From positions 1 to 22,643 of IMG/VR virus record IMGVR_UViG_3300044922_000087: a DNA stretch of 22,643 nucleotides; one strand, written 5' to 3'. Position 1 is the stretch's first letter; every line of letters begins with the position of its first letter. This DNA comes from a virus. The position numbers and the translations under genes were made by a program. Positions 1,125 to 18,781 of the stretch are shown here, in pieces. Under the pieces are notes generated by a model. It had not been told where the DNA came from. It ran no database searches and was given only the letters and a program-made list of their open reading frames with translations.

Positions 1125-2294
1125 ATGAGCGATTTAAAAGCATTCGAATCTGCCCTCGAATCAAAATTGGCAGAACAAAAAGCTGAGGTTGCAAGTGTAA
1201 CCGAGAAGGCTGCAAAGGCATTTGACTCTAAGGTAGAGCAAATCAACGAGCAAATGGAGAAGTCTAACAAATCTCTTGCTGAAGCAATCAACGAAGTAAA
1301 AGAAGCTAAGGCTGCTTTTGGTAAGTTGAGCGCAAACGCTGAGAAGAAAGTTGCAACTTCATACGCTGAACACGTAAACAACATCAAGGCTGAGATTGGT
1401 TCTGCAATCGAAAAAGGCTGGAACGAAATCAAAGCTGCTGCACGTAGCAATGGTAAAGGTTTCTCTGCTGACATCGATTTGAAAGCAGTTGGTGTAATGA
1501 CCATCGGTAACAACTTGACTGGTTCTGTTTACACATCTTATGTTGACAACCCAGCTCTTCGTAGCTTCGTTAACCCACACCTTAGAAGTGTGTTTAACAT
1601 CATCCCAGTATCAACTGGTTCAGTATCTTTCCCAAGAGGTAACACTCCGGTAGGTGAAGGTTCATTCGGTAAGCAAACTGAAGGTTCTGCAAAGCCGCAA
1701 GTTGATTACGATGTAACAGTTGTAAACACTGCGTTGTCTTTCATAGCTGGTTATGCTAAGGTATCTCGTCAAATGATTGATGATTTGCCATTCTTACAAG
1801 CATACCTTCAGCAGTCATTGATTGAAGATTTCCAAAAGGCTGAAGATACTTATTATCTTAACGCTATCGCATCTTCTGCAACTGCTGGTTCTTCTTCTGG
1901 TGCTAACACCGCTGAGAAGTTCATCGACTACGTTGCACAACTTGGTGCATTGAACTGGACTCCAAACCTTGCTTTGACCACTCACGCTGGTTGGGCATCA
2001 TTGTTGAAAACCAAGCCAAGTGACTATTCACTTCCTGGTGGAATGGTTATCGACAACAATGGTAACGTAAGAATCGTAGGTGTACCAGTTATACCTCACT
2101 CTTTGGTTACTGCTTCTAAGATCTACGTTATGGACACTACTAAGTTCGCTATTGCTCAGCAAAGCGGTCTTGCAGTTCGTTCTACCGAGTTCGATCAAGA
2201 TGATTTCATCAAGAACCTTATCACTTTCAGAGCAGAAGCTCGTTGCGAACTATTGCAGTTCCAGCCTTCAGCTGCTATCTATGGTGCTATCTAA
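1125..2294 (+). CDS. Major capsid protein, HK97-like, with N-terminal scaffold (delta) domain
   Basis: A 389-residue HK97-fold capsid protein. Residues 1 to about 108 are strongly helical and charged (Lys/Glu/Ala heptad-like pattern), the usual coiled-coil delta domain that acts as internal scaffold and is cut off by the neighbouring protease. The mature part starts somewhere around residues 108-125 and contains the typical features: 'NPALRSFVNPHLRSVFNIIPV' (N-arm/E-loop region), F-P-R-G-N-T-P, 'SAKPQVDYDVTVVNTALSFI', 'AGYAKVSRQMIDDLPFLQAY' and a C-terminal 'ITFRAEARCELLQFQPSA' strand. Codon use is cleaner than in neighbours (AAC, TTC, GGT, GCT preferred), as expected for the most highly expressed virion gene. 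It starts 3 nt after the protease stop and is followed by an intrinsic terminator. The exact cleavage site is not identifiable from one sequence. Confidence 0.93.
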   Translation: MSDLKAFESALESKLAEQKAEVASVTEKAAKAFDSKVEQINEQMEKSNKSLAEAINEVKEAKAAFGKLSANAEKKVATSYAEHVNNIKAEIGSAIEKGWNEIKAAARSNGKGFSADIDLKAVGVMTIGNNLTGSVYTSYVDNPALRSFVNPHLRSVFNIIPVSTGSVSFPRGNTPVGEGSFGKQTEGSAKPQVDYDVTVVNTALSFIAGYAKVSRQMIDDLPFLQAYLQQSLIEDFQKAEDTYYLNAIASSATAGSSSGANTAEKFIDYVAQLGALNWTPNLALTTHAGWASLLKTKPSDYSLPGGMVIDNNGNVRIVGVPVIPHSLVTASKIYVMDTTKFAIAQQSGLAVRSTEFDQDDFIKNLITFRAEARCELLQFQPSAAIYGAI

Positions 2295-2308
2295 GGTTTA
2301 TAAATATA

Positions 2309-2337
2309 GGGGAGGGAGTTTTCTCTCCCCTTATTTT
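2309..2337 (+). terminator. Intrinsic terminator after the capsid gene
   Basis: An 8-bp stem GGGGAGGG (2309-2316) / CTCTCCCC (2323-2330), with one G-U pair and a 6-nt loop, is followed by TTATTTT. It lies 15 nt after the capsid stop and before the methyltransferase gene. No clear promoter follows it, so it may be leaky and reduce rather than block downstream expression. Confidence 0.7.
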
Positions 2338-2342
2338 AACTT

Positions 2343-2906
2343 ATGAACTATATTATCATAGGGGCAATGGATGGAGTTAGCTTTGACAATATATTTGACA
2401 AGCTAATAAAAGATGATGTTGCATTATTTGTGGAGCCAATCCCACATCAGTTTAAGAAACTGCAAGAAAACGTAGAGAAATTGAGTTGTAAAGTATTCCT
2501 TGAGAACTCGGTTGTTAGTGATAGGATAGAGGACATTGTAATGGCATATTTGCCTGATGCTGAGGATTATTTAGGTGGGTGTAGTAGTGTAGTTAAATTT
2601 GGCACTCCTCTTAATAGGTATTTGGCTAAGATAGATGAGTTAAGTTACCACGAAGCTAAATCGGTAACATTTAATATGTTGTGTGAGAAGTATGGCTTTG
2701 ATGAAGTGGATTATGTGCAAGTGGATTGTGAGGGTTATGACCAAGTAATTGTTGATAGCATTGATATTGACAAATACAAAATAAAACAATTAAAATTTGA
2801 GACTCATTACGTTAGTAGTGAATTTTTAGAATATTTCGAGAAAAAAACTAACCCAACTAATATAATAAACTTAGAAGCTGACATTATCTATGAATATACT
2901 TTTTAG
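2343..2906 (+). CDS. FkbM-family SAM-dependent methyltransferase
   Basis: A 187-residue protein with the layout of FkbM-type (Methyltransf_21) methyltransferases, which methylate sugars and related small groups using S-adenosylmethionine. Visible features: a nucleotide-binding opening I-I-G-A-M-D-G (residues 5-11), V-E-P at 30-32 followed by 'FKKLQENV', a substrate-side 'TFNMLCEKYGFDEVDYVQVD' stretch (109-128) ending in V-D-C-E-G-Y-D, which corresponds to the family's D-(V/C)-E-G motif. It is shorter than many family members (often 220-280 aa), mostly because the N-terminal lead-in is lacking. The gene overlaps the following glycosyltransferase by 17 nt, so the two are probably co-translated and act on the same glycan. 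It is AT-rich (14 G/C in bases 2761-2820) compared with the capsid gene. Whether the substrate is the phage's own virion or a host surface glycan cannot be read from sequence. Confidence 0.78.
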   Translation: MNYIIIGAMDGVSFDNIFDKLIKDDVALFVEPIPHQFKKLQENVEKLSCKVFLENSVVSDRIEDIVMAYLPDAEDYLGGCSSVVKFGTPLNRYLAKIDELSYHEAKSVTFNMLCEKYGFDEVDYVQVDCEGYDQVIVDSIDIDKYKIKQLKFETHYVSSEFLEYFEKKTNPTNIINLEADIIYEYTF

Positions 2907-3864
2907 CATACACTTATATCCTCCTCAGCATCTTTGCGGTGCTGAGATGATGTCTCATAGAATAGTAAAAAATTTACAGAGTAAAGGGCATCACGTAAGA
3001 GTATTGCTGCATCAAGCAAACCACTATAAAATTACTACTACATATACTTACGATGGTGTGGATGTATTTCCTCCAAACGCTAATGTTATAGAGAATTTAT
3101 TTAGATGGAGTCATTGTGTTTTTACACATTTAGACTATACAAGATGGACAATAGGTGCTGCTGGACTATACAAAAAGCCATTATTTCATTTAATCCATAA
3201 TACACATACTTACCCAGAGATTGTAAATGCTATGAGTTCTCAACATATAGTGTATAACTCTTTATGGGCAAAACAAAAATTGGGTTACAAATGGAGTAAC
3301 TTTATACTCACACCACCTACTGACTATCGTGATTTTGAATTAGGGGTTGATAGTGCTGATAATGAATACATTACGCTTATTAATCTTAATGAAAACAAAG
3401 GCGGTGAGATATTTTATCAGATTGCGAAGGCTATGCCTCACAAGAAGTTCTTAGGTGTAAAAGGGTCTTATGACGAACAAATTATTAAAGACTTGCCTAA
3501 TATAACTTATATTGACAAAACAACTAATATACTTTTGGTTTATCAAAAGACTCGCATACTTCTTATGCCAAGCAAATATGAGAGTTGGGGTATAACTGCT
3601 ACTGAGGCGATGTGTTGTGGGATTCCAGTGATTAGTACAGAGGCAGAAGGACTGAAAGAAAATTGTGCCAAGGCTGGTATATTTATAAAGGATAGAAATG
3701 ATATTGAAAGCTGGGTTAAAGAAATTACGAAACTTGACGATGCCAAAGCCTACGCAGCAGCATCTAAAAAAGCAAAAGGAAGAGGAAGAGAACACGACCC
3801 AAGAAAAGCACTTGATGAGTTTGAGCAGTGGCTCAGAGAAGAAGTTAATAAATACAACGGATAA
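2890..3864 (+). CDS. Glycosyltransferase, GT4-like (GT-B fold)
   Basis: A 324-residue cytoplasmic glycosyltransferase. The N terminus reads 'MNILFSIHLYPPQHLCGAEM', the glycine-containing acceptor-side loop typical of GT-B enzymes, and the C-terminal half carries the GT4 nucleotide-sugar signature: 'RILLMPSKYESWGITATEA' with the E-x7-E pair E231/E239, followed by M-C-C-G-I-P-V-I and 'STEAEGLKENC'. At 324 aa it is a little short for the family (usually 350-420), the reduction being in the N-terminal domain. No membrane segment is visible. It follows the methyltransferase with a 17-nt overlap and precedes the connector gene by 2 nt, so it is embedded in the head operon rather than in a host-modification locus. 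Donor sugar and acceptor are unknown; I infer decoration of a virion protein as the leading possibility, host lipopolysaccharide or capsule modification as the alternative. Confidence 0.85.
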   Translation: MNILFSIHLYPPQHLCGAEMMSHRIVKNLQSKGHHVRVLLHQANHYKITTTYTYDGVDVFPPNANVIENLFRWSHCVFTHLDYTRWTIGAAGLYKKPLFHLIHNTHTYPEIVNAMSSQHIVYNSLWAKQKLGYKWSNFILTPPTDYRDFELGVDSADNEYITLINLNENKGGEIFYQIAKAMPHKKFLGVKGSYDEQIIKDLPNITYIDKTTNILLVYQKTRILLMPSKYESWGITATEAMCCGIPVISTEAEGLKENCAKAGIFIKDRNDIESWVKEITKLDDAKAYAAASKKAKGRGREHDPRKALDEFEQWLREEVNKYNG

Positions 3865-3866
3865 GT

Positions 3867-4427
3867 ATGGCGATTTATATAGATAGTATCATAGTCACCG
3901 CTGATGCAAATGTAGAGCCAGTGAGCCGCACACAAGCCAAAGATTGGATGAGAATTACCTATAATACTGACGATACTTTGATTGACGAGCTTATCACAAG
4001 CTCAAGAAAGCATTTAGAGAAACTAACTGGCTTATCACTTGTTAACAAGACAATTAAGAGTTACGTAGAACTAACTGGTGAAGTACCGGCGGTTTGGATG
4101 GTAGATTTGCCTTATGGACCACTTGGATGTATTGACTTGGTTAGATACAAGAGTGGGATAAATATGTGGGACACTTTAGATATAAATGAGGACTACGAGA
4201 AGATAGGTAATAAGTTGTGGTTCTATATGGGTGGCACTTATGAGATTACATACCAGGCTGGGTATGGTAGCATACCAGCAGATTTGGAGAACGACATACT
4301 AACCCTTGTGGCTTGGATGTACGAGAACAGAGGTAAAAAGATGAACGCTGATCCTAAAGGGATTATTTCACAATATCCTTTCTGGGATGGTCTTAACTAT
4401 CATCAATATAAAAAAGTAGTTATATAG
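3867..4427 (+). CDS. Head-tail connector, HK97 gp6-like
   Basis: A 186-residue adaptor that would form the ring below the portal. It has the family pattern: an N-terminal 'VEPVSRTQAKDWMRITYNTD' region, 'LIDELITSSRKHLEKLTGLS' helices, then a beta-rich centre around 'VDLPYGPLGCIDLVRY', the characteristic Y-E-I-T-Y-Q-A-G-Y-G turn, and a final helix 'LENDILTLVAWMYENRGKK'. This is the classic layout of phage gp6-like/YqbG-type connectors (150-200 aa). It begins 2 nt after the glycosyltransferase stop and its TAG overlaps by 1 nt the GTG start of the next gene, in the conserved order connector - gp10-like - tail terminator - tail tube. Confidence 0.87.
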   Translation: MAIYIDSIIVTADANVEPVSRTQAKDWMRITYNTDDTLIDELITSSRKHLEKLTGLSLVNKTIKSYVELTGEVPAVWMVDLPYGPLGCIDLVRYKSGINMWDTLDINEDYEKIGNKLWFYMGGTYEITYQAGYGSIPADLENDILTLVAWMYENRGKKMNADPKGIISQYPFWDGLNYHQYKKVVI

Positions 4428-4858
4428 TGGCAAAGGCTAAAGTTGATATGAGTGCTTTTAATAAATCTATGAATAGCATAGAGAAAGCATTTATTGAAAG
4501 ACTTGATAAGATTGAAAACGCATTTAAAGATACTATGGTTAAAATGGAGCAAGAGGCAACTGCTGCTGCTCCAGTAGATACTGGAGAACTGAAAAGTTCA
4601 ATAAATTGGAAAGAAGTAGGAAAGCTATCTTATGAATTAAGAGCTGAAGCACCTTATGCAGCTTATGTTGAGTTTGGAACTGGAGATGCAACTATAATAA
4701 AAAACTATGACCAATTTTGGCAAGATATTGGAGAAAAATTTTGGACAAGAAGAGAAAACAAGGGAGTGAAAGCAAATCCATTTTTTTATCCAACTGTTAA
4801 TAAAAATATACCAAAGTTAAAGAATAAAATAAAATCAATACTAAGCAAAAATGCTTGA
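4427..4858 (+). CDS. HK97 gp10-like neck / head closure protein
   Basis: A 143-residue protein of the HK97 gp10 family, which sits at the head-tail interface. The diagnostic segment is visible: 'AAAPVDTGELKSSINWKEVG' followed by 'ELRAEAPYAAYVEFGTG', which is the P-V-D-T-G-x-L and Y-A-x-Y-V-E-F-G-T pair found throughout this family, and a later N-P-F-F-Y-P-T segment corresponding to the usual 'rPFl.pA' motif. The start used is GTG at 4427, overlapping the connector stop by one base; an in-frame ATG at 4448-4450 (Met8) is the alternative and would drop only seven residues. It overlaps the next gene by 8 nt. Confidence 0.85.
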   Translation: MAKAKVDMSAFNKSMNSIEKAFIERLDKIENAFKDTMVKMEQEATAAAPVDTGELKSSINWKEVGKLSYELRAEAPYAAYVEFGTGDATIIKNYDQFWQDIGEKFWTRRENKGVKANPFFYPTVNKNIPKLKNKIKSILSKNA

Positions 4859-8564: not shown

Positions 8565-10624
8565 TGGCGTATAATACTAAATATGAGATTAAATTTTATA
8601 GCAAAGAAGGAGATTTTTGCAAAGTGCAAATGTCTTTTGATGGCTATTCTGGTGATATTATACAATTAAATCCAGCGAGTAGACCATTTATACTTAGGGA
8701 GTTTAATACAGATGAAGATATATATAAACCATTAAGACCACAACAAGCAGAAATAAATTTTATATCTGAGACAACTGTATCAATAGATGACTTTTTAGGA
8801 AATAATGATGTTTACTGTTTAGTAAAATTTTATTATGGTGGCGAGCTTGGTCCAAATGTTTATTGGAGTGGGTATTTATTACAAGATGAGTTTCAAGAAT
8901 TTTGGGAAGATACTAAGCATATTATAACATTAAGAGCAAGTGAAAACTTAGGTTCTTTAAAAACTATACCATTGACTGATGATGATGGTTTAGAAATATC
9001 ATCTATCGAATATATTACTAATTATATTCGATATTGTGTTAAGGACTTAGTACAAGTAGGTAGTGCTAAATATCAAACATTATGGATATTAAATAATTTA
9101 TTTAATACTTATATGGATGATACTTACCCATCACTTGACCAAGTTTACGTTGACCCAAGAACATTCTCAATAGGTGATGGAGAGTATTTAGATGAATATA
9201 GTGTTCTTGAAAGAATTAATAGGGCTTTTTCACAAACATTATTTCAATATAATAACGCTTGGTACATAGTTAGAATTGAAGAATATTATATACCAGACAC
9301 AGATAATTTAAGACTATTCCAATATAAATTCTTGCAATTCCCAGTACCTTGGGATATTTATACAAAAAGATTTGATATAAATGTTGGTGTAAATGAGTCT
9401 GTGAAACCTATTGCTCCTACAATGTTGAGGTTTATAAAAAGACCTACAAAGGTAGATCAGATTAATATAAATTATGACTACCCATCTGAGTTACTTTGTA
9501 ATGAGAATTTTAAAAGAGGTTCTTTATTATCAAGTACATCAACAACTAAAACATATAGCATACTTGATTGGAATGCATATAAAGGATTGAGAGAAAGTCC
9601 AACACCCATAACTGCATCATATTATAGAAAAGATAAATTAGATGCTTTTGGTAATGTTATAGATAGCTTTGCTTATTTACCTTATGAGACAACTGGTACG
9701 ACATCTGGTGCTGACTGGTTGCAAAGTTGCGACATTAAAGTTACTAAAGGTGATGTATTAGACATATCATTTTTATGGAGATGGAATGAGACTGGTATTT
9801 TAATTGCTCCAACACCAACATTTAATGTAGCTCAAGTATTATTTAAGGCAGATGCATCACCTCAGTTTAGAGCTGGTATGGAAAGCAATGGTGTTTGGAA
9901 GATTGCACCATCAACTTGGGATTCTTGGGCGCCTACAAATATCCCTTATATAAAGTTTACACCTCCCGAAACTGCAACAAACGAAAACGGATATTATGAA
10001 ATAAGTGCATTATCTAAGCCTATACCAGCTAATGGTATAGTAAGAATATTATTGCATAATTCAGTTAATGCAAGTTATAGTAACAACTTCTCACAGTTGC
10101 AACTAAGGTTACAAGCATCCTTAAATGGGTTGACTACTTTAAACATTGCTGGTGATTTAGATAGATTTACCAAGCCTGAGGATATAAGAGCTAACTTCTA
10201 TGATACTATCTATTTGGCAGATATGCCTAACCCTAAATTTATGGGTTCATTGTATGATAGTGCTGGTGAGCTTACTGACCCAACTTGGTATAGATATAGA
10301 TATAATACAGAAGAGTTTAGCTTTAAAAAACAGAATCTAATTGCTCAATGGGAGCAAAATAGGTTTTTTAGAAATAAAATAGATGCTAATTTCTTTGGTT
10401 TGAAATGGGATGATGGCGGAAGTGATAAGGTTATTGGATTAATTAATACAATTAAATTTGTAGACGATGACCCTAATAAAACTTATGTTATATCAAATCT
10501 TAAAGAGATAGATTTTGCTAATTCTACTTGGAGTGCTACACTACAAGAGATTTATGATCAAGATAGAGATTTTGAGAATGAGACAGACTATCCAACATAT
10601 TTAAAAGATTATATATATAAATAA
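8564..10624 (+). CDS. Tail tip / baseplate-like structural protein
   Basis: A 686-residue protein located directly after the tape measure, where distal tail and baseplate hub proteins are encoded. Residues 1-260 are beta-rich and resemble the large tail proteins of Bacteroidota phages: 'VQMSFDGYSGDIIQLNPA' region, 'LRPQQAEINFISETTVSIDD', W-S-G-Y-L-L-Q-D-E-F (101-110), later 'VLERINRAFSQTLFQYNNAW'. Residues about 310-530 look like a jelly-roll insertion, with alternating strands such as 'KVTKGDVLDISFLWRWNETG' and 'PIPANGIVRILLHNS', the pattern of a galactose-binding-like or carbohydrate-binding domain. The C-terminal 130 residues return to the first style and end Y-L-K-D-Y-I-Y-K. I infer a hub/Dit-Tal analogue with a possible sugar-binding insert; I do not recognise a named family. 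Start overlaps the tape measure stop by 1 nt. Confidence 0.65.
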   Translation: MAYNTKYEIKFYSKEGDFCKVQMSFDGYSGDIIQLNPASRPFILREFNTDEDIYKPLRPQQAEINFISETTVSIDDFLGNNDVYCLVKFYYGGELGPNVYWSGYLLQDEFQEFWEDTKHIITLRASENLGSLKTIPLTDDDGLEISSIEYITNYIRYCVKDLVQVGSAKYQTLWILNNLFNTYMDDTYPSLDQVYVDPRTFSIGDGEYLDEYSVLERINRAFSQTLFQYNNAWYIVRIEEYYIPDTDNLRLFQYKFLQFPVPWDIYTKRFDINVGVNESVKPIAPTMLRFIKRPTKVDQININYDYPSELLCNENFKRGSLLSSTSTTKTYSILDWNAYKGLRESPTPITASYYRKDKLDAFGNVIDSFAYLPYETTGTTSGADWLQSCDIKVTKGDVLDISFLWRWNETGILIAPTPTFNVAQVLFKADASPQFRAGMESNGVWKIAPSTWDSWAPTNIPYIKFTPPETATNENGYYEISALSKPIPANGIVRILLHNSVNASYSNNFSQLQLRLQASLNGLTTLNIAGDLDRFTKPEDIRANFYDTIYLADMPNPKFMGSLYDSAGELTDPTWYRYRYNTEEFSFKKQNLIAQWEQNRFFRNKIDANFFGLKWDDGGSDKVIGLINTIKFVDDDPNKTYVISNLKEIDFANSTWSATLQEIYDQDRDFENETDYPTYLKDYIYK

Positions 10625-11235
10625 TGGCAGATATAGTAAAAACGGAAGGTCTTGTTTTAGCCATTACTGATGGTAGTGGTAACGTATATCCATTTGCTTG
10701 TGCAAGTAGTTCAAGTATATCAATAACAAAGGATTTGATTGAACTTGCACCAAAAACAAATACAAATTATAGGGAATATATAAATGGTAGGCAAACTGCT
10801 ACCATTAGTGGGTCTGGTCTTGTCAAAATTGTCCAATCAAATATGCAACCAATTACCTTTTTTGATAGCTTCATTGAGGCTACCGATACATCGTATATTG
10901 GATATTTAGATTTGATAGATCCACAAAATAATTATAAATTGTATAAATTTTCTTGTATACTTCAGAGCTTGTCACTTGAATCAAGCTACTCAGGAACACC
11001 TACTTATAACTTTACACTACAAGTAAGTGGAAATTTTACAGAATTAACTGTTGTTGACACTTACACCGTTGCGAGTGGTACAATAACTGCTCGTAGCACT
11101 ACTACTCATAAACTTGTGGCGGTTGGATATGGAGGCAAATGGTATTATAATTATACTGTTAGTGCTGGTCCCGTAATTAATTTAGGTTCATCGCTTAATG
11201 GCACAAGTGTCGTGGCGGCATATATAGCAATATAA
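10624..11235 (+). CDS. Tail protein with tube-like N-terminal domain
   Basis: A 203-residue beta-rich protein. The first ~140 residues read like a second tail-tube fold protein: 'LVLAITDGSGNVYPFACASS', followed by 'SSISITKDLIELAPKTNTNY', then R-E-Y-I-N-G-R-Q-T-A-T-I-S-G-S-G, a turn pattern characteristic of TP901-type tail tube proteins, and 'FTLQVSGNFTEL' at the domain end. Residues about 145-203 form a Gly/Ser/Thr-rich extension ('TVASGTITARSTTTHKLVAV') that could be a small Ig-like or surface-exposed domain. It differs from the main tube gene at 5289-5720 and may build the tail tip ring or adaptor. It starts with a 1-nt overlap with the gene upstream. Family assignment is by pattern only. 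Confidence 0.55.
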   Translation: MADIVKTEGLVLAITDGSGNVYPFACASSSSISITKDLIELAPKTNTNYREYINGRQTATISGSGLVKIVQSNMQPITFFDSFIEATDTSYIGYLDLIDPQNNYKLYKFSCILQSLSLESSYSGTPTYNFTLQVSGNFTELTVVDTYTVASGTITARSTTTHKLVAVGYGGKWYYNYTVSAGPVINLGSSLNGTSVVAAYIAI

Positions 11236-14383: not shown

Positions 14384-17020
14384 ATGGCAAATACATTAAG
14401 ATTTAAAAGGGGTTTAGTTGCAACAATACCTACGGCATTAGCTGGTGAGCCACTATTCACAACCGACACCTTTGATTTATACATAGGCAACGGAACGACC
14501 AACACACGTTTCCAAAAGTACATTGCGAGTGGGGCATCTACTCAACTATTGAGAGGTGATGGCTCTTTACTTACAATGCCTATTGTCTTAACAAGTCCTG
14601 CCAATGGTCAAGTGCTAAAGTACAACGGGACAAGCTGGGTGAACGATAGCGATGCTGGGATTACGGGTAGTGGTAGTGCTGGTCAAGTCGCTTACTTTAC
14701 GGGTGCGACTACACAAGCTGGGAGTAATAATTTGTTTTTTGATAGTGCAAATATAAGATTAGGAATTGGCACTGCTGCACCTTCTACTGATTTACATATA
14801 TCAAGAGCAGGAAGTAAAACTTTAAGACTTACTAATACAACAAATTCAACAGATGTAGAATTAGGAATATCTACTGCATTAGGTACTGTTGGTACAAATA
14901 CTGCAAACGCTTTCGCTATTGTAACAAGCAATACAGAACGGATGCGTATTACACCAAGTACGGGTAACGTTCACATAGGAACATTTGTTTCCGATAGCGG
15001 TCAACGCTTACAAGTAACGGGTGATACGTTATTGAAAGGTAGTGGGAATACAAGTGCGACAACGGCATTGACGGTGCAAAATAGTGCAAGTACAAATATG
15101 TTTAGGGTTAAAAACGATGGATTTACCTTTACAAATTTTGGAACATACATTGGTACTTCTGATAGTAATGTAATAGCGGCATCAGACGCAACTGGCAATT
15201 CTTCTGCAAGTGGTTTAAATTTAAAATTATTATTTGGTTCATTTAATACCGCTGGATATGGTCTTATAATTGCTGGCTTTAATACAAGTACAAGAACTGC
15301 AACAAGTGGAACAAGTGGAACATTATCATTAGAACATGGATTCGCACCAACAAGCGGAACTGGTACATTTATAATGTTATCAGCAAGTGGCACCATCAAC
15401 CAAACGGGCGGTGCAAACGGCATCACTCGTGGATTTTATGTTGCACCAACCCTAACGGCTGCGGCTGATTGGAGGAGTATAGAATGGAGCAACAATAGTG
15501 GATGGGGATTGTATGGTGCGGGGACTGCTGCGAATTTTGTAAATGGGGCATTAGGCGTGGGAACTTCTACAATGACATACAAATTCAATGTCATTGATAG
15601 TGCGGCAACCTATGTGGCTGGATTTAGAGGAAGTTCATCAACTTATATTGTAGTTGGTGATACTTCATTAGGTGGCGAAAGTGGAATTAATTTAAGAAAT
15701 AGTACAGGTCAAACTTTTATTACACAAAGTGGTAGTATTTTTGACATAGCCACATTTACCGGTGTTAATGTAATAAGATTTCAAACAACTGGAACAGAGG
15801 CAGCAAGGATAACCGCAACAAATCGTAATTTTCACATCGGCACATTTAGTTCCGATTCGGGCGAGAAGCTACAAGTCACTGGCACTGCGAAGATAACGGG
15901 TGCGACAACATTAGGTGCGACAACGATTAGCACAAGTTCATCTACTGCTCTTGCAATCAATTCAAGTGCTTCTGCTTGTTATTTAGGTATGAGTGATTCA
16001 AGTGGTTCATTCACATACTTAGGTAGTGATAATGGTGCAATGTTATTCCAAACACCAGCAAGTAGCTACTCAACTAAAATGACACTTGACTCCTCTGGCA
16101 ATCTCGGTCTGGGTGTGACTCCGAGTGCGTGGGCAATATTAAAAGGTTTACAAGTTGGGTTAACTGCATCTATTAGTGGTTATGCAGCAACAACTGAAGG
16201 AATGTTTTTAATGAGCAACTCTTTTTATAATGGTGGTGCTTTTGTGTATCAAGTTAATGGTTTTGCTACAACATATTTACAACAAAATGGTGAGCATAGA
16301 TTTCAAACTGCTGCAAGTGGAACGGCTGGTAATAATATTACTTTTACAAGACCAATGACACTCACCGCTGCTGGAAGATTATTGTTAGGAACAACTGTTG
16401 AGGGAACTAATTTATTAGATGTAGTCGGCACTGCGAGGATAACGGGGGATTTAGCAGTTGACACCAACACATTGTTCGTTGATGCGACAAATAATAGGGT
16501 GGGGGTTTTGACTACTACACCATCAGAGCCTTTACACGTTGCTGGGAATATGCTCATTAGTGGTGCTAACTCGTTCAAGATGCGTAACCTTGCTGGTACG
16601 GATGTGAATGTGATTAGAGCAGTAAGTGGCGGTACAAGTGTCCTAAGCACTGCAACTCTTGGAAACAACATTGCAATAGGTACACAATCTGCTCACGACT
16701 TTTTACTATGCTCAAGTGATACTGAAAGAATAAGATTATCAAGTTCTGGATGGTTCTCACATACAACTGCAACAAATCCTTCTTCATCTGTAACTGATTC
16801 TTATGTGCAATACTCGGCTGACGTAACTGCTGGTAACGCTGCTCCACACTTTAGAACGGAGAATGGTGCGGTGATAAAACTATATCAAGAAACAACTGCG
16901 GTAGGTAACTCTATCATATCATTAGGAGGTGGTAACTCGGTTCTTGATGATACAACCTTTGATGGTTACACACTTAGACAAATCGTAAAAGCCTTGCGTA
17001 ATCAAGGTATATTAGCTTAA
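14384..17020 (+). CDS. Large tail fibre / receptor-binding protein with Mtd_N-like head
   Basis: An 878-residue fibre. The N terminus, 'TLRFKRGLVATIPTALAGEP' followed by L-F-T-T-D-T-F-D-L-Y-I-G-N-G, matches the small domain (Mtd_N-like) that opens many fibre and tropism proteins and attaches them to the tail. The body has repeated shaft motifs: a G-I-G-T-x-x-P-S-x-x-L-H-I kind (around 126-140, again R-V-G-V-L-T-T-T-P-S-E-P-L-H-V near 706-720), and two copies of 'HIGTFxSDSGxxLQVTG' at about 197-213 and 486-502, each preceded by an A/M-R-I-T segment. The end 'TFDGYTLRQIVKALRNQGIL' plus A has no peptidase S74 chaperone, and looks like a short helical cap. Probably the host-specificity determinant. 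A 35-nt gap separates it from the previous gene. Confidence 0.82.
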   Translation: MANTLRFKRGLVATIPTALAGEPLFTTDTFDLYIGNGTTNTRFQKYIASGASTQLLRGDGSLLTMPIVLTSPANGQVLKYNGTSWVNDSDAGITGSGSAGQVAYFTGATTQAGSNNLFFDSANIRLGIGTAAPSTDLHISRAGSKTLRLTNTTNSTDVELGISTALGTVGTNTANAFAIVTSNTERMRITPSTGNVHIGTFVSDSGQRLQVTGDTLLKGSGNTSATTALTVQNSASTNMFRVKNDGFTFTNFGTYIGTSDSNVIAASDATGNSSASGLNLKLLFGSFNTAGYGLIIAGFNTSTRTATSGTSGTLSLEHGFAPTSGTGTFIMLSASGTINQTGGANGITRGFYVAPTLTAAADWRSIEWSNNSGWGLYGAGTAANFVNGALGVGTSTMTYKFNVIDSAATYVAGFRGSSSTYIVVGDTSLGGESGINLRNSTGQTFITQSGSIFDIATFTGVNVIRFQTTGTEAARITATNRNFHIGTFSSDSGEKLQVTGTAKITGATTLGATTISTSSSTALAINSSASACYLGMSDSSGSFTYLGSDNGAMLFQTPASSYSTKMTLDSSGNLGLGVTPSAWAILKGLQVGLTASISGYAATTEGMFLMSNSFYNGGAFVYQVNGFATTYLQQNGEHRFQTAASGTAGNNITFTRPMTLTAAGRLLLGTTVEGTNLLDVVGTARITGDLAVDTNTLFVDATNNRVGVLTTTPSEPLHVAGNMLISGANSFKMRNLAGTDVNVIRAVSGGTSVLSTATLGNNIAIGTQSAHDFLLCSSDTERIRLSSSGWFSHTTATNPSSSVTDSYVQYSADVTAGNAAPHFRTENGAVIKLYQETTAVGNSIISLGGGNSVLDDTTFDGYTLRQIVKALRNQGILA

Positions 17021-18067: not shown

Positions 18068-18781
18068 ATGAACTACCAAAAACACTACGATAATTTAATG
18101 GCTTCAAGACTTTTGCTTAAAAAACAAAGGCATATTGAAAGAAAAAATGGTCTATATTATGAAGGTCATCATATAATACCAAAATATCTTGGTGGTACTG
18201 GTACAAGTTCTCAAGGTTTATATAATTCAAATATAGTTTACCTTACTGCAAGAGAGCATTTTTTGGCACATTGGCTATTTTGGAGAATAAAAAAAGATAG
18301 ACAAAGTGCATTGGCATTTCATAAAATGATGTCGAACAATAAAAATCAAAATAGAATTGTATCATCAAGAGGCTATGAAGAAGCAAGGTTAGCATTTTCT
18401 GAAACAAATAAAGGAAACGATTTTTGGAAGCATAAAAAAAAGCAAAGGGAATTTAGTGCTGAACATAGATTATTTTATTCTAAATTGATGAAAGGTAGAT
18501 TTGCTGGAGAAAAAAATTATTTTTACGGCAAAACACATACATTGGAGACAAAAAAAATTATATCTGAAAAAGCTAAAAACAGAGATTGCTCACATTACAA
18601 ATCAAACAAAGGTATAAAAGTTGTAATGAAAGATGGAGTGGTATTAGCTGAATTTAAATCAAGTAAAGAGGTAGCTAAATTTATAGGATCATCACATAGT
18701 AATGTTAGACACGTTCTTGGAGGCACACAAAAAACGGCTAAGGGTTATAATATAATATATAAAAATAATTTATTCCAATGA
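18068..18781 (+). CDS. HNH homing endonuclease with NUMOD domains
   Basis: A 237-residue free-standing homing endonuclease. The HNH nuclease part is 'YYEGHHIIPKYLGGTG' (H34/H35), N54 in N-S-N-I-V-Y-L and 'TAREHFLAHWLFW' (H64/H68). It is followed by a NUMOD3-type DNA-binding segment near 145-170 (N-Y-F-Y-G-K-T-H-T-L-E-T-K-K) and a NUMOD1-type repeat near 190-230 (V-V-L-A-E-F-K-S-S-K-E-V-A-K-F-I, then G-Y-N-I-I-Y). Such genes cut a homologous site in phages lacking them and spread by repair. It lies between endolysin and spanin. Base composition is different: 16 G/C in 18121-18180 against 26 in 17881-17940 of the endolysin, with several A-tracts, indicating recent acquisition. It overlaps the spanin start by 4 nt. 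No intron is apparent. Confidence 0.88.
   Translation: MNYQKHYDNLMASRLLLKKQRHIERKNGLYYEGHHIIPKYLGGTGTSSQGLYNSNIVYLTAREHFLAHWLFWRIKKDRQSALAFHKMMSNNKNQNRIVSSRGYEEARLAFSETNKGNDFWKHKKKQREFSAEHRLFYSKLMKGRFAGEKNYFYGKTHTLETKKIISEKAKNRDCSHYKSNKGIKVVMKDGVVLAEFKSSKEVAKFIGSSHSNVRHVLGGTQKTAKGYNIIYKNNLFQ

What the first reader, a model, noticed from the sequence alone, without database searches (positions are those of the whole stretch)
2343..3864. Glycan-modification cassette (FkbM methyltransferase + GT4 glycosyltransferase) inside the head operon
Two overlapping genes for sugar transfer and sugar methylation sit between the major capsid gene and the connector gene, where head genes normally follow without interruption. 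They are not with the fibre or lysis genes, and an intrinsic terminator precedes them. Both are AT-rich relative to the capsid and connector genes. The simplest explanation is decoration of a virion protein (capsid or tail tube) with an O-methylated sugar, perhaps to help the particle bind host polysaccharide or mucus or to hide from antibodies. Some mycobacteriophages are known to glycosylate their virion proteins. Alternatively the pair modifies a host surface glycan to block superinfection.
Basis: partly seen in the sequence, partly recalled or inferred. Interest (0 to 1): 0.62.

Follow-up and report, generated by a model that had tools for sequence, protein, structure and literature searches.

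The report
Swappable sugar-enzyme slot behind phage capsid
A large group of uncultured tailed phages always carries a sugar-transfer enzyme gene right behind the gene for its shell protein, together with an interchangeable second sugar-modifying enzyme (a methyltransferase here), so these viruses probably coat their particles with sugars whose chemistry they can swap while the shell protein stays nearly the same.

Summary
Between the major capsid (MCP) and head-tail connector genes lie an FkbM-family methyltransferase (2343-2906, Pfam 5e-7) and a GT4 glycosyltransferase (2890-3864, Pfam 2.4e-15), 17 bp overlapping, after a real intrinsic terminator. It is not an isolated moron. In all 284 IMG/VR loci where both flanks are visible, GT4 lies between MCP and connector. 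In 140 distinct MCP-to-GT4 intervals the space is never empty: it holds a GT25-like glycosyltransferase (62), the FkbM methyltransferase (37), an unrelated class I methyltransferase (22) or GT25-like plus FkbM (13); six more include HNH endonucleases. Modifier genes have been exchanged ORF for ORF: homology stops at the slot's start codon and resumes at the GT4 start codon, and slot state changes at least 20 times on the MCP tree. One pair has identical MCPs but FkbM in one phage and the GT25-like enzyme in the other. MT and GT4 are under purifying selection. Best explanation: GT4 puts a sugar on a virion protein, most likely the capsid, and the slot enzyme methylates or extends it. It works like the Che8 mycobacteriophage system but with different enzymes. 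Glycosylation itself is inferred, not shown.

The parts
1125..2294 (+). Major capsid protein gene; constant left neighbour and likeliest acceptor of the sugar (inference)
   Evidence: Phage_capsid 2.2e-16, phrog_10 1.2e-28; 83-100% identical across relatives
2308..2331 (+). Intrinsic terminator after the capsid gene; left border of the exchanged slot
   Evidence: found in 136 of 140 relatives with pair-preserving changes
2343..2906 (+). Modifier slot gene: FkbM-type SAM-dependent methyltransferase (family B)
   Evidence: PF05050 5e-7, above cut-off; invariant IIGAMDG, EP and D-x-EG motifs; model pLDDT 91 with class I methyltransferase fold; dN/dS 0.07-0.13
2890..3864 (+). GT4-type (GT-B) glycosyltransferase, the constant enzyme of the cassette
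   Evidence: PF00534 2.4e-15; phrog_26352 5.4e-64; invariant E231...E239 (E-x7-E); between MCP and connector in 284 of 284 loci
3867..4427 (+). Head-tail connector gene; constant right neighbour
   Evidence: Phage_connect_1 1.5e-8

Best explanation
This is a virion-glycosylation cassette of a small (about 34 kb), apparently virulent siphovirus-like group. The constant GT4 enzyme, encoded with the head genes, transfers a host-supplied nucleotide sugar to a virion protein, most likely the major capsid protein (alternatively tail tube or neck). The enzyme of the upstream slot then modifies that sugar: in this phage FkbM adds an O-methyl group; in relatives a GT25-like enzyme adds a second sugar, another methyltransferase methylates, or GT25-like plus FkbM do both. 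Whole slot genes are exchanged by recombination between the conserved capsid end and the conserved GT4 start, sometimes with an HNH endonuclease gene alongside, so phages can change the surface sugar while the capsid protein stays the same. Shown here: gene families, constant location, slot exchange, purifying selection. Inferred: enzymatic activities, the virion as target, the capsid as acceptor, the order of steps, and the benefit (changed surface recognition or adhesion).
For: Family assignments. GT4 always between MCP and connector, 284 of 284 loci, single copy in ten near-complete relatives. The slot is always filled by one of three sugar-enzyme-like families in 140 distinct intervals. 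ORF-for-ORF exchange with borders at the slot and GT4 start codons; at least 20 changes of slot state on the MCP tree. MCPs identical over 389 residues with different slot genes (L122/L177), which fits a slot enzyme acting on the sugar rather than on the protein. dN/dS 0.07-0.26 for MT and GT4. Che8, whose capsid glycosylation is reported, encodes GT2, GT25 and a TylF-type O-methyltransferase domain. TurkishDelight carries a remote GT4 relative, also between MCP and major tail protein. Remote relatives of the MTs lie in sugar-gene clusters of other phages, two of them beside Thr/Pro-rich mucin-like proteins.
Against: No biochemical data. Position in the head operon does not prove a virion substrate. 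The acceptor is unknown. The nearest cultured relatives by MCP (phi10:1, 11b) lack the cassette. GT4 does not diverge faster than its neighbours. Among close pairs (MCP at least 97% identical) most keep the same slot gene (33 of 35). The family A model has only moderate confidence (pLDDT 66).
Confidence: 0.62

Rival explanations
1. The enzymes modify a host surface glycan (LPS or capsule) late in infection, to stop released particles sticking to debris or to infected cells, or to block superinfection.
For: GT4 and FkbM enzymes commonly act on LPS and exopolysaccharides (family knowledge); the exchange of modifiers resembles serotype conversion; late expression would suit protection of progeny.
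Against: No membrane flippase or transferase and no integrase recognised in two relatives read in full; GT4 is never found beside fibre or lysis genes; a host-surface function does not explain the fixed place between MCP and connector.
Confidence: 0.18
2. The enzymes hypermodify phage DNA (sugar on a base, then methylation).
For: Phage-encoded glycosyltransferases can act on DNA (PMC12619734 citing Pyle 2024); a relative has a TET-associated-type glycosyltransferase.
Against: That DNA-type enzyme (TAGT, PF20691 3.8e-33) lies in the replication half and is exchanged there for a cytosine methyltransferase in another relative, so DNA modification looks like a separate module; FkbM and GT4 are not the usual DNA-base families; no base-hydroxylating enzyme was recognised.
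Confidence: 0.06
3. The slot is mainly a recombination hot spot or homing-endonuclease landing site in which cargo genes with unrelated or little benefit are parked.
For: HNH/NUMOD genes occur in the slot; phi10:1 and 11b have unrelated small ORFs there; other genes of the module, e.g. gp10, are also highly variable.
Against: GT4 is never missing and never moves; apart from HNH genes the slot contents are limited to three enzyme families of one functional theme in 140 intervals; dN/dS 0.07-0.26.
Confidence: 0.14

Closest known systems
Virion glycosylation of mycobacteriophages Che8 and Rita (Freeman 2023, doi 10.1016/j.chom.2023.05.028; not held, known here through PMC12691614, PMC11256854, PMC12619734)
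   Same: Phage-encoded glycosyltransferases thought to decorate capsid and tail tube; the Che8 genes include a GT25, GT2 domains and a TylF-type O-methyltransferase domain, with an HNH gene nearby: the same functional set.
   Different: Che8's genes lie at the right end of the genome, not beside MCP; enzymes not detectably homologous (hhalign E about 0.1); no exchangeable modifier slot was examined there; in our phages glycosylation is not shown.
Streptomyces phage TurkishDelight gp20 glycosyltransferase
   Same: GT4-type domains, best at 30% identity over 85% of the query (E 4e-29), also between MCP and major tail protein.
   Different: 678 aa with two GT4 units; no FkbM or family A gene recognised beside it; function untested.
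Virus glycosyltransferases of the GT-A fold: mimivirus R655, PBCV-1 capsid enzyme
   Same: Slot family A model matches mimivirus R655 (Z 15.0), COLGALT1 of GT25 (Z 13.7) and, less closely, the PBCV-1 enzyme for major capsid glycosylation (Z 11.1).
   Different: Viruses of eukaryotes; a shared GT-A fold shows no common substrate, and the PBCV-1 match does not stand above other GT-A rows.
Phage serotype-conversion (gtr-type) systems
   Same: Exchangeable sugar-modifying genes carried by phages (general knowledge).
   Different: Those act on host O-antigen through membrane proteins of temperate phages; none recognised here.

Membership tests
FkbM methyltransferase (PF05050) | Score above the curated family cut-off | tested here: met
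   30.4 bits against 22.7; another family B member 45.6 bits
FkbM methyltransferase (PF05050) | Conserved SAM-binding motifs on a class I methyltransferase fold | tested here: met
   Invariant IIGAMDG, EP and D-x-EG across 17 members; model pLDDT 91, PDB matches are class I methyltransferases, with weak E-values
FkbM methyltransferase (PF05050) | SAM-dependent O-methylation of a sugar or other hydroxyl | not testable with these tools
   Needs enzyme assay
GT4 glycosyltransferase (PF00534) | Score above the curated family cut-off | tested here: met
   56.9 bits against 26.4
GT4 glycosyltransferase (PF00534) | E-x7-E motif of the C-terminal domain | tested here: met
   E231 and E239 invariant in 13 relatives
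GT25 family (slot family A of relatives) | Score to the Pfam family Glyco_transf_25 | tested here: not met
   No Pfam match at E 0.1; called GT25-like from fold and the EDD motif only
GT25 family (slot family A of relatives) | GT-A fold with acidic metal-binding motif | tested here: met
   VIA Z 13.7 to COLGALT1; invariant F-E-D-D; model of moderate confidence
Phage virion glycosylation system (Che8 type) | Phage-encoded sugar-transfer enzymes conserved with structural genes or shown to act on them | tested here: inconclusive
   Location constant beside MCP; no activity data
Phage virion glycosylation system (Che8 type) | Glycan attached to capsid or tail tube protein | not testable with these tools
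   Needs mass spectrometry
Phage virion glycosylation system (Che8 type) | Detectable homology to the Che8 enzymes | tested here: not met
   hhalign E 0.13 and 0.12 for two of the gene pairs
Phage serotype-conversion (gtr-type) system | Membrane flippase/transferase genes in a temperate phage | tested here: inconclusive
   None recognised and no integrase in two relatives read in full; read by eye, with only some proteins searched

The most novel reading that the evidence does not exclude
A glycotype-switching system of phage particles: a constant capsid-linked glycosyltransferase with an exchangeable modifier slot (O-methyl, other methyl, second sugar, or both), swapped as whole genes by recombination, which lets phages with the same capsid protein present different surface sugars, comparable to serotype switching but on the virion.
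Probability: 0.4. Interest if true: 0.78.

Novelty: new variant of a known kind. Interest (0 to 1): 0.6.

Why it matters
Virion glycosylation of tailed phages has been reported for mycobacteriophages; how widespread it is elsewhere is open. Here is a common environmental phage lineage (322 IMG/VR contigs with this GT4) in which a glycosyltransferase is locked to the capsid gene and its partner is exchanged while the capsid protein is held nearly constant. If the virion is the target, it makes directly testable whether phages diversify surface sugars instead of surface protein, and what selects for that in nature.

Tried and rejected
Host or prophage search: MCP and GT4 alignments against genome contigs gave no relative, so the host is unknown; Bacteroidota is only suggested by the nearest cultured MCP relatives (31% identity). 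Faster evolution of GT4 than of its neighbours: not seen. AT-richness as a sign of foreign origin: rejected. Terminator as a mark of a cassette insertion: rejected, it follows MCP in every slot type. Sequence search of PDB for the MT gave nothing useful, and the fold search with its model gave only generic class I methyltransferases with weak E-values. Which virion protein is the acceptor could not be decided. Among 35 pairs with at least 97% MCP nucleotide identity only 2 differ in slot label, one of them only by an added HNH gene, so exchange is frequent over the tree but not between nearly every close pair. Paper searches found no description of this cassette; the Freeman 2023 paper itself is not held.

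Full report
OBSERVATION. The window is a 22.6-kb fragment of an uncultured virus record. It reads, left to right: head morphogenesis protein (partial), prohead protease, major capsid protein (MCP), FkbM-type methyltransferase (MT, 2343-2906), GT4 glycosyltransferase (GT, 2890-3864), connector, neck, tail terminator, tail tube, chaperone, tape measure, tail tip, fibres, lysin, then nuclease genes. MT and GT overlap by 17 bp and GT ends 2 bp before the connector.

THE GT IS A CORE HEAD-MODULE GENE. Relatives of the GT were found in 322 IMG/VR contigs. Of 337 fetched loci with GT (some overlap in the same contig), 284 show both flanks and all 284 have MCP upstream and connector downstream; the other 53 are cut by a contig end. 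Ten long relatives carry it once each. No relative was found in GTDB genomes, and in INPHARED only distant ones, the best in Streptomyces phage TurkishDelight, between MCP and major tail protein.

THE SLOT. In 140 distinct MCP-to-GT intervals the space is always filled: family A 62, B (FkbM, the window's) 37, C 22, A-B 13, and six that add HNH/NUMOD endonuclease genes (A and B were also used as search queries, so the proportions are biased). A+C or B+C does not occur in this set; two loci cut at the contig end show an HNH gene before C (L151 and L300, probably one contig). B passes the FkbM cut-off, has conserved motifs and a confident class I methyltransferase model. C resembles class I methyltransferases, below the Pfam cut-offs. 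A has no Pfam match, but its model (pLDDT 66, moderate) matches GT-A glycosyltransferases, best mimivirus R655 (Z 15.0) and COLGALT1 of GT25 (Z 13.7).

EXCHANGE. L269 (A) and L271 (C) are 97.1% identical over 3,230 bp ending at the slot, have no detectable match in it, and are 95.3% identical from the GT start on. L006 (A) and the window (B) are 99.1% identical up to the slot and align again from base 2889, one base before the GT start codon. L053 (A-B) differs from L183 (A) by an added B gene. L122 (B) and L177 (A) have identical MCPs and one tail-tube difference. On a tree of 95 MCP genes slot state changes at least 20 times (label-shuffled mean 45, so it is also partly inherited). Between the window and L003, synonymous divergence is 0.035 in MCP, 0.332 in MT and 0.054 in GT: alleles of the slot gene seem to move even within one family. 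dN/dS is 0.07-0.13 for MT and 0.09-0.26 for GT, so both are maintained as functional proteins.

BORDERS. The terminator hairpin between MCP and the slot was found in 136 of 140 relatives, in 40 sequence versions whose changes keep the pairs. Three of the other four also show a hairpin by eye; one (L224) has lost it together with the start of the MT. It stands before all slot types, so it is the capsid gene's terminator and the left border of the exchange region. It would make the enzymes scarcer than the capsid protein (inference).

MECHANISM. The modifier changes while the structural proteins stay the same, which fits an enzyme acting on the sugar laid down by the constant GT rather than on the protein (inference). 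The two relatives read in full (G001, with 123-bp end repeats; G003) showed no integrase and no nucleotide-sugar or membrane glycan genes that I recognised (not every protein was searched), so the donor sugar would come from the host. G001 has a separate DNA-type TAGT glycosyltransferase, with a cytosine methyltransferase in the corresponding place of G003, which argues that DNA modification is a different module.

COMPARISON. Glycosylation of capsid and tail tube is reported for mycobacteriophages (Freeman 2023). Che8's three genes, all annotated as glycosyltransferases, hold by Pfam a GT2 plus a TylF-type O-methyltransferase domain, a weak GT2, and a GT25. The functional set matches; no homology was detected for the two pairs compared and the location differs. 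Remote relatives of B (27-29% identity) and C (47-53%) mostly lie in sugar-gene clusters of other phages (L257 is an exception), two beside Thr/Pro-rich mucin-like proteins (L255, L366).

VERDICT. Observation confirmed. Virion glycosylation is the best explanation (0.62) and the capsid the likeliest acceptor, but neither is shown. What appears new is the exchangeable modifier slot on a nearly constant capsid background; my paper searches found no description of it.

HANDING IN.

Noticed in passing
window 4427-4858 (gp10/neck): The neck gene is hypervariable: between the window and L098, MCP is 100% and connector 99% identical but gp10 only 41%.
   Followed up: partly
relative G001 (L160/L161), 32468-33298 of the reversed contig; corresponding place in G003: A TET-associated-type glycosyltransferase (TAGT) without a recognised TET gene; a cytosine methyltransferase stands there in G003.
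   Followed up: partly
window 18068-18781: Homing-endonuclease-like gene with NUMOD3 and an I-HmuI-type domain between lysin and lipoprotein-like gene; absent at that place in G001 and G003.
   Followed up: no
window 10624-11235: A second tail-tube-like protein (weak Phage_tail_2 match, 0.0024) after the tail-tip gene.
   Followed up: no
window 14384-17020: Fibre-like protein with the N-terminal domain of the major tropism determinant (Mtd_N, 8.7e-7).
   Followed up: no
L366 1630-2685 and L255 8368-10839: Thr/Pro-rich, mucin-like proteins beside sugar-gene clusters with remote relatives of families C and B; possible O-glycosylation substrates in other phages.
   Followed up: no
L224 (same contig as L124), start of the slot: A member that has lost half the terminator hairpin together with the usual start of the methyltransferase gene; deletion or assembly error.
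   Followed up: no
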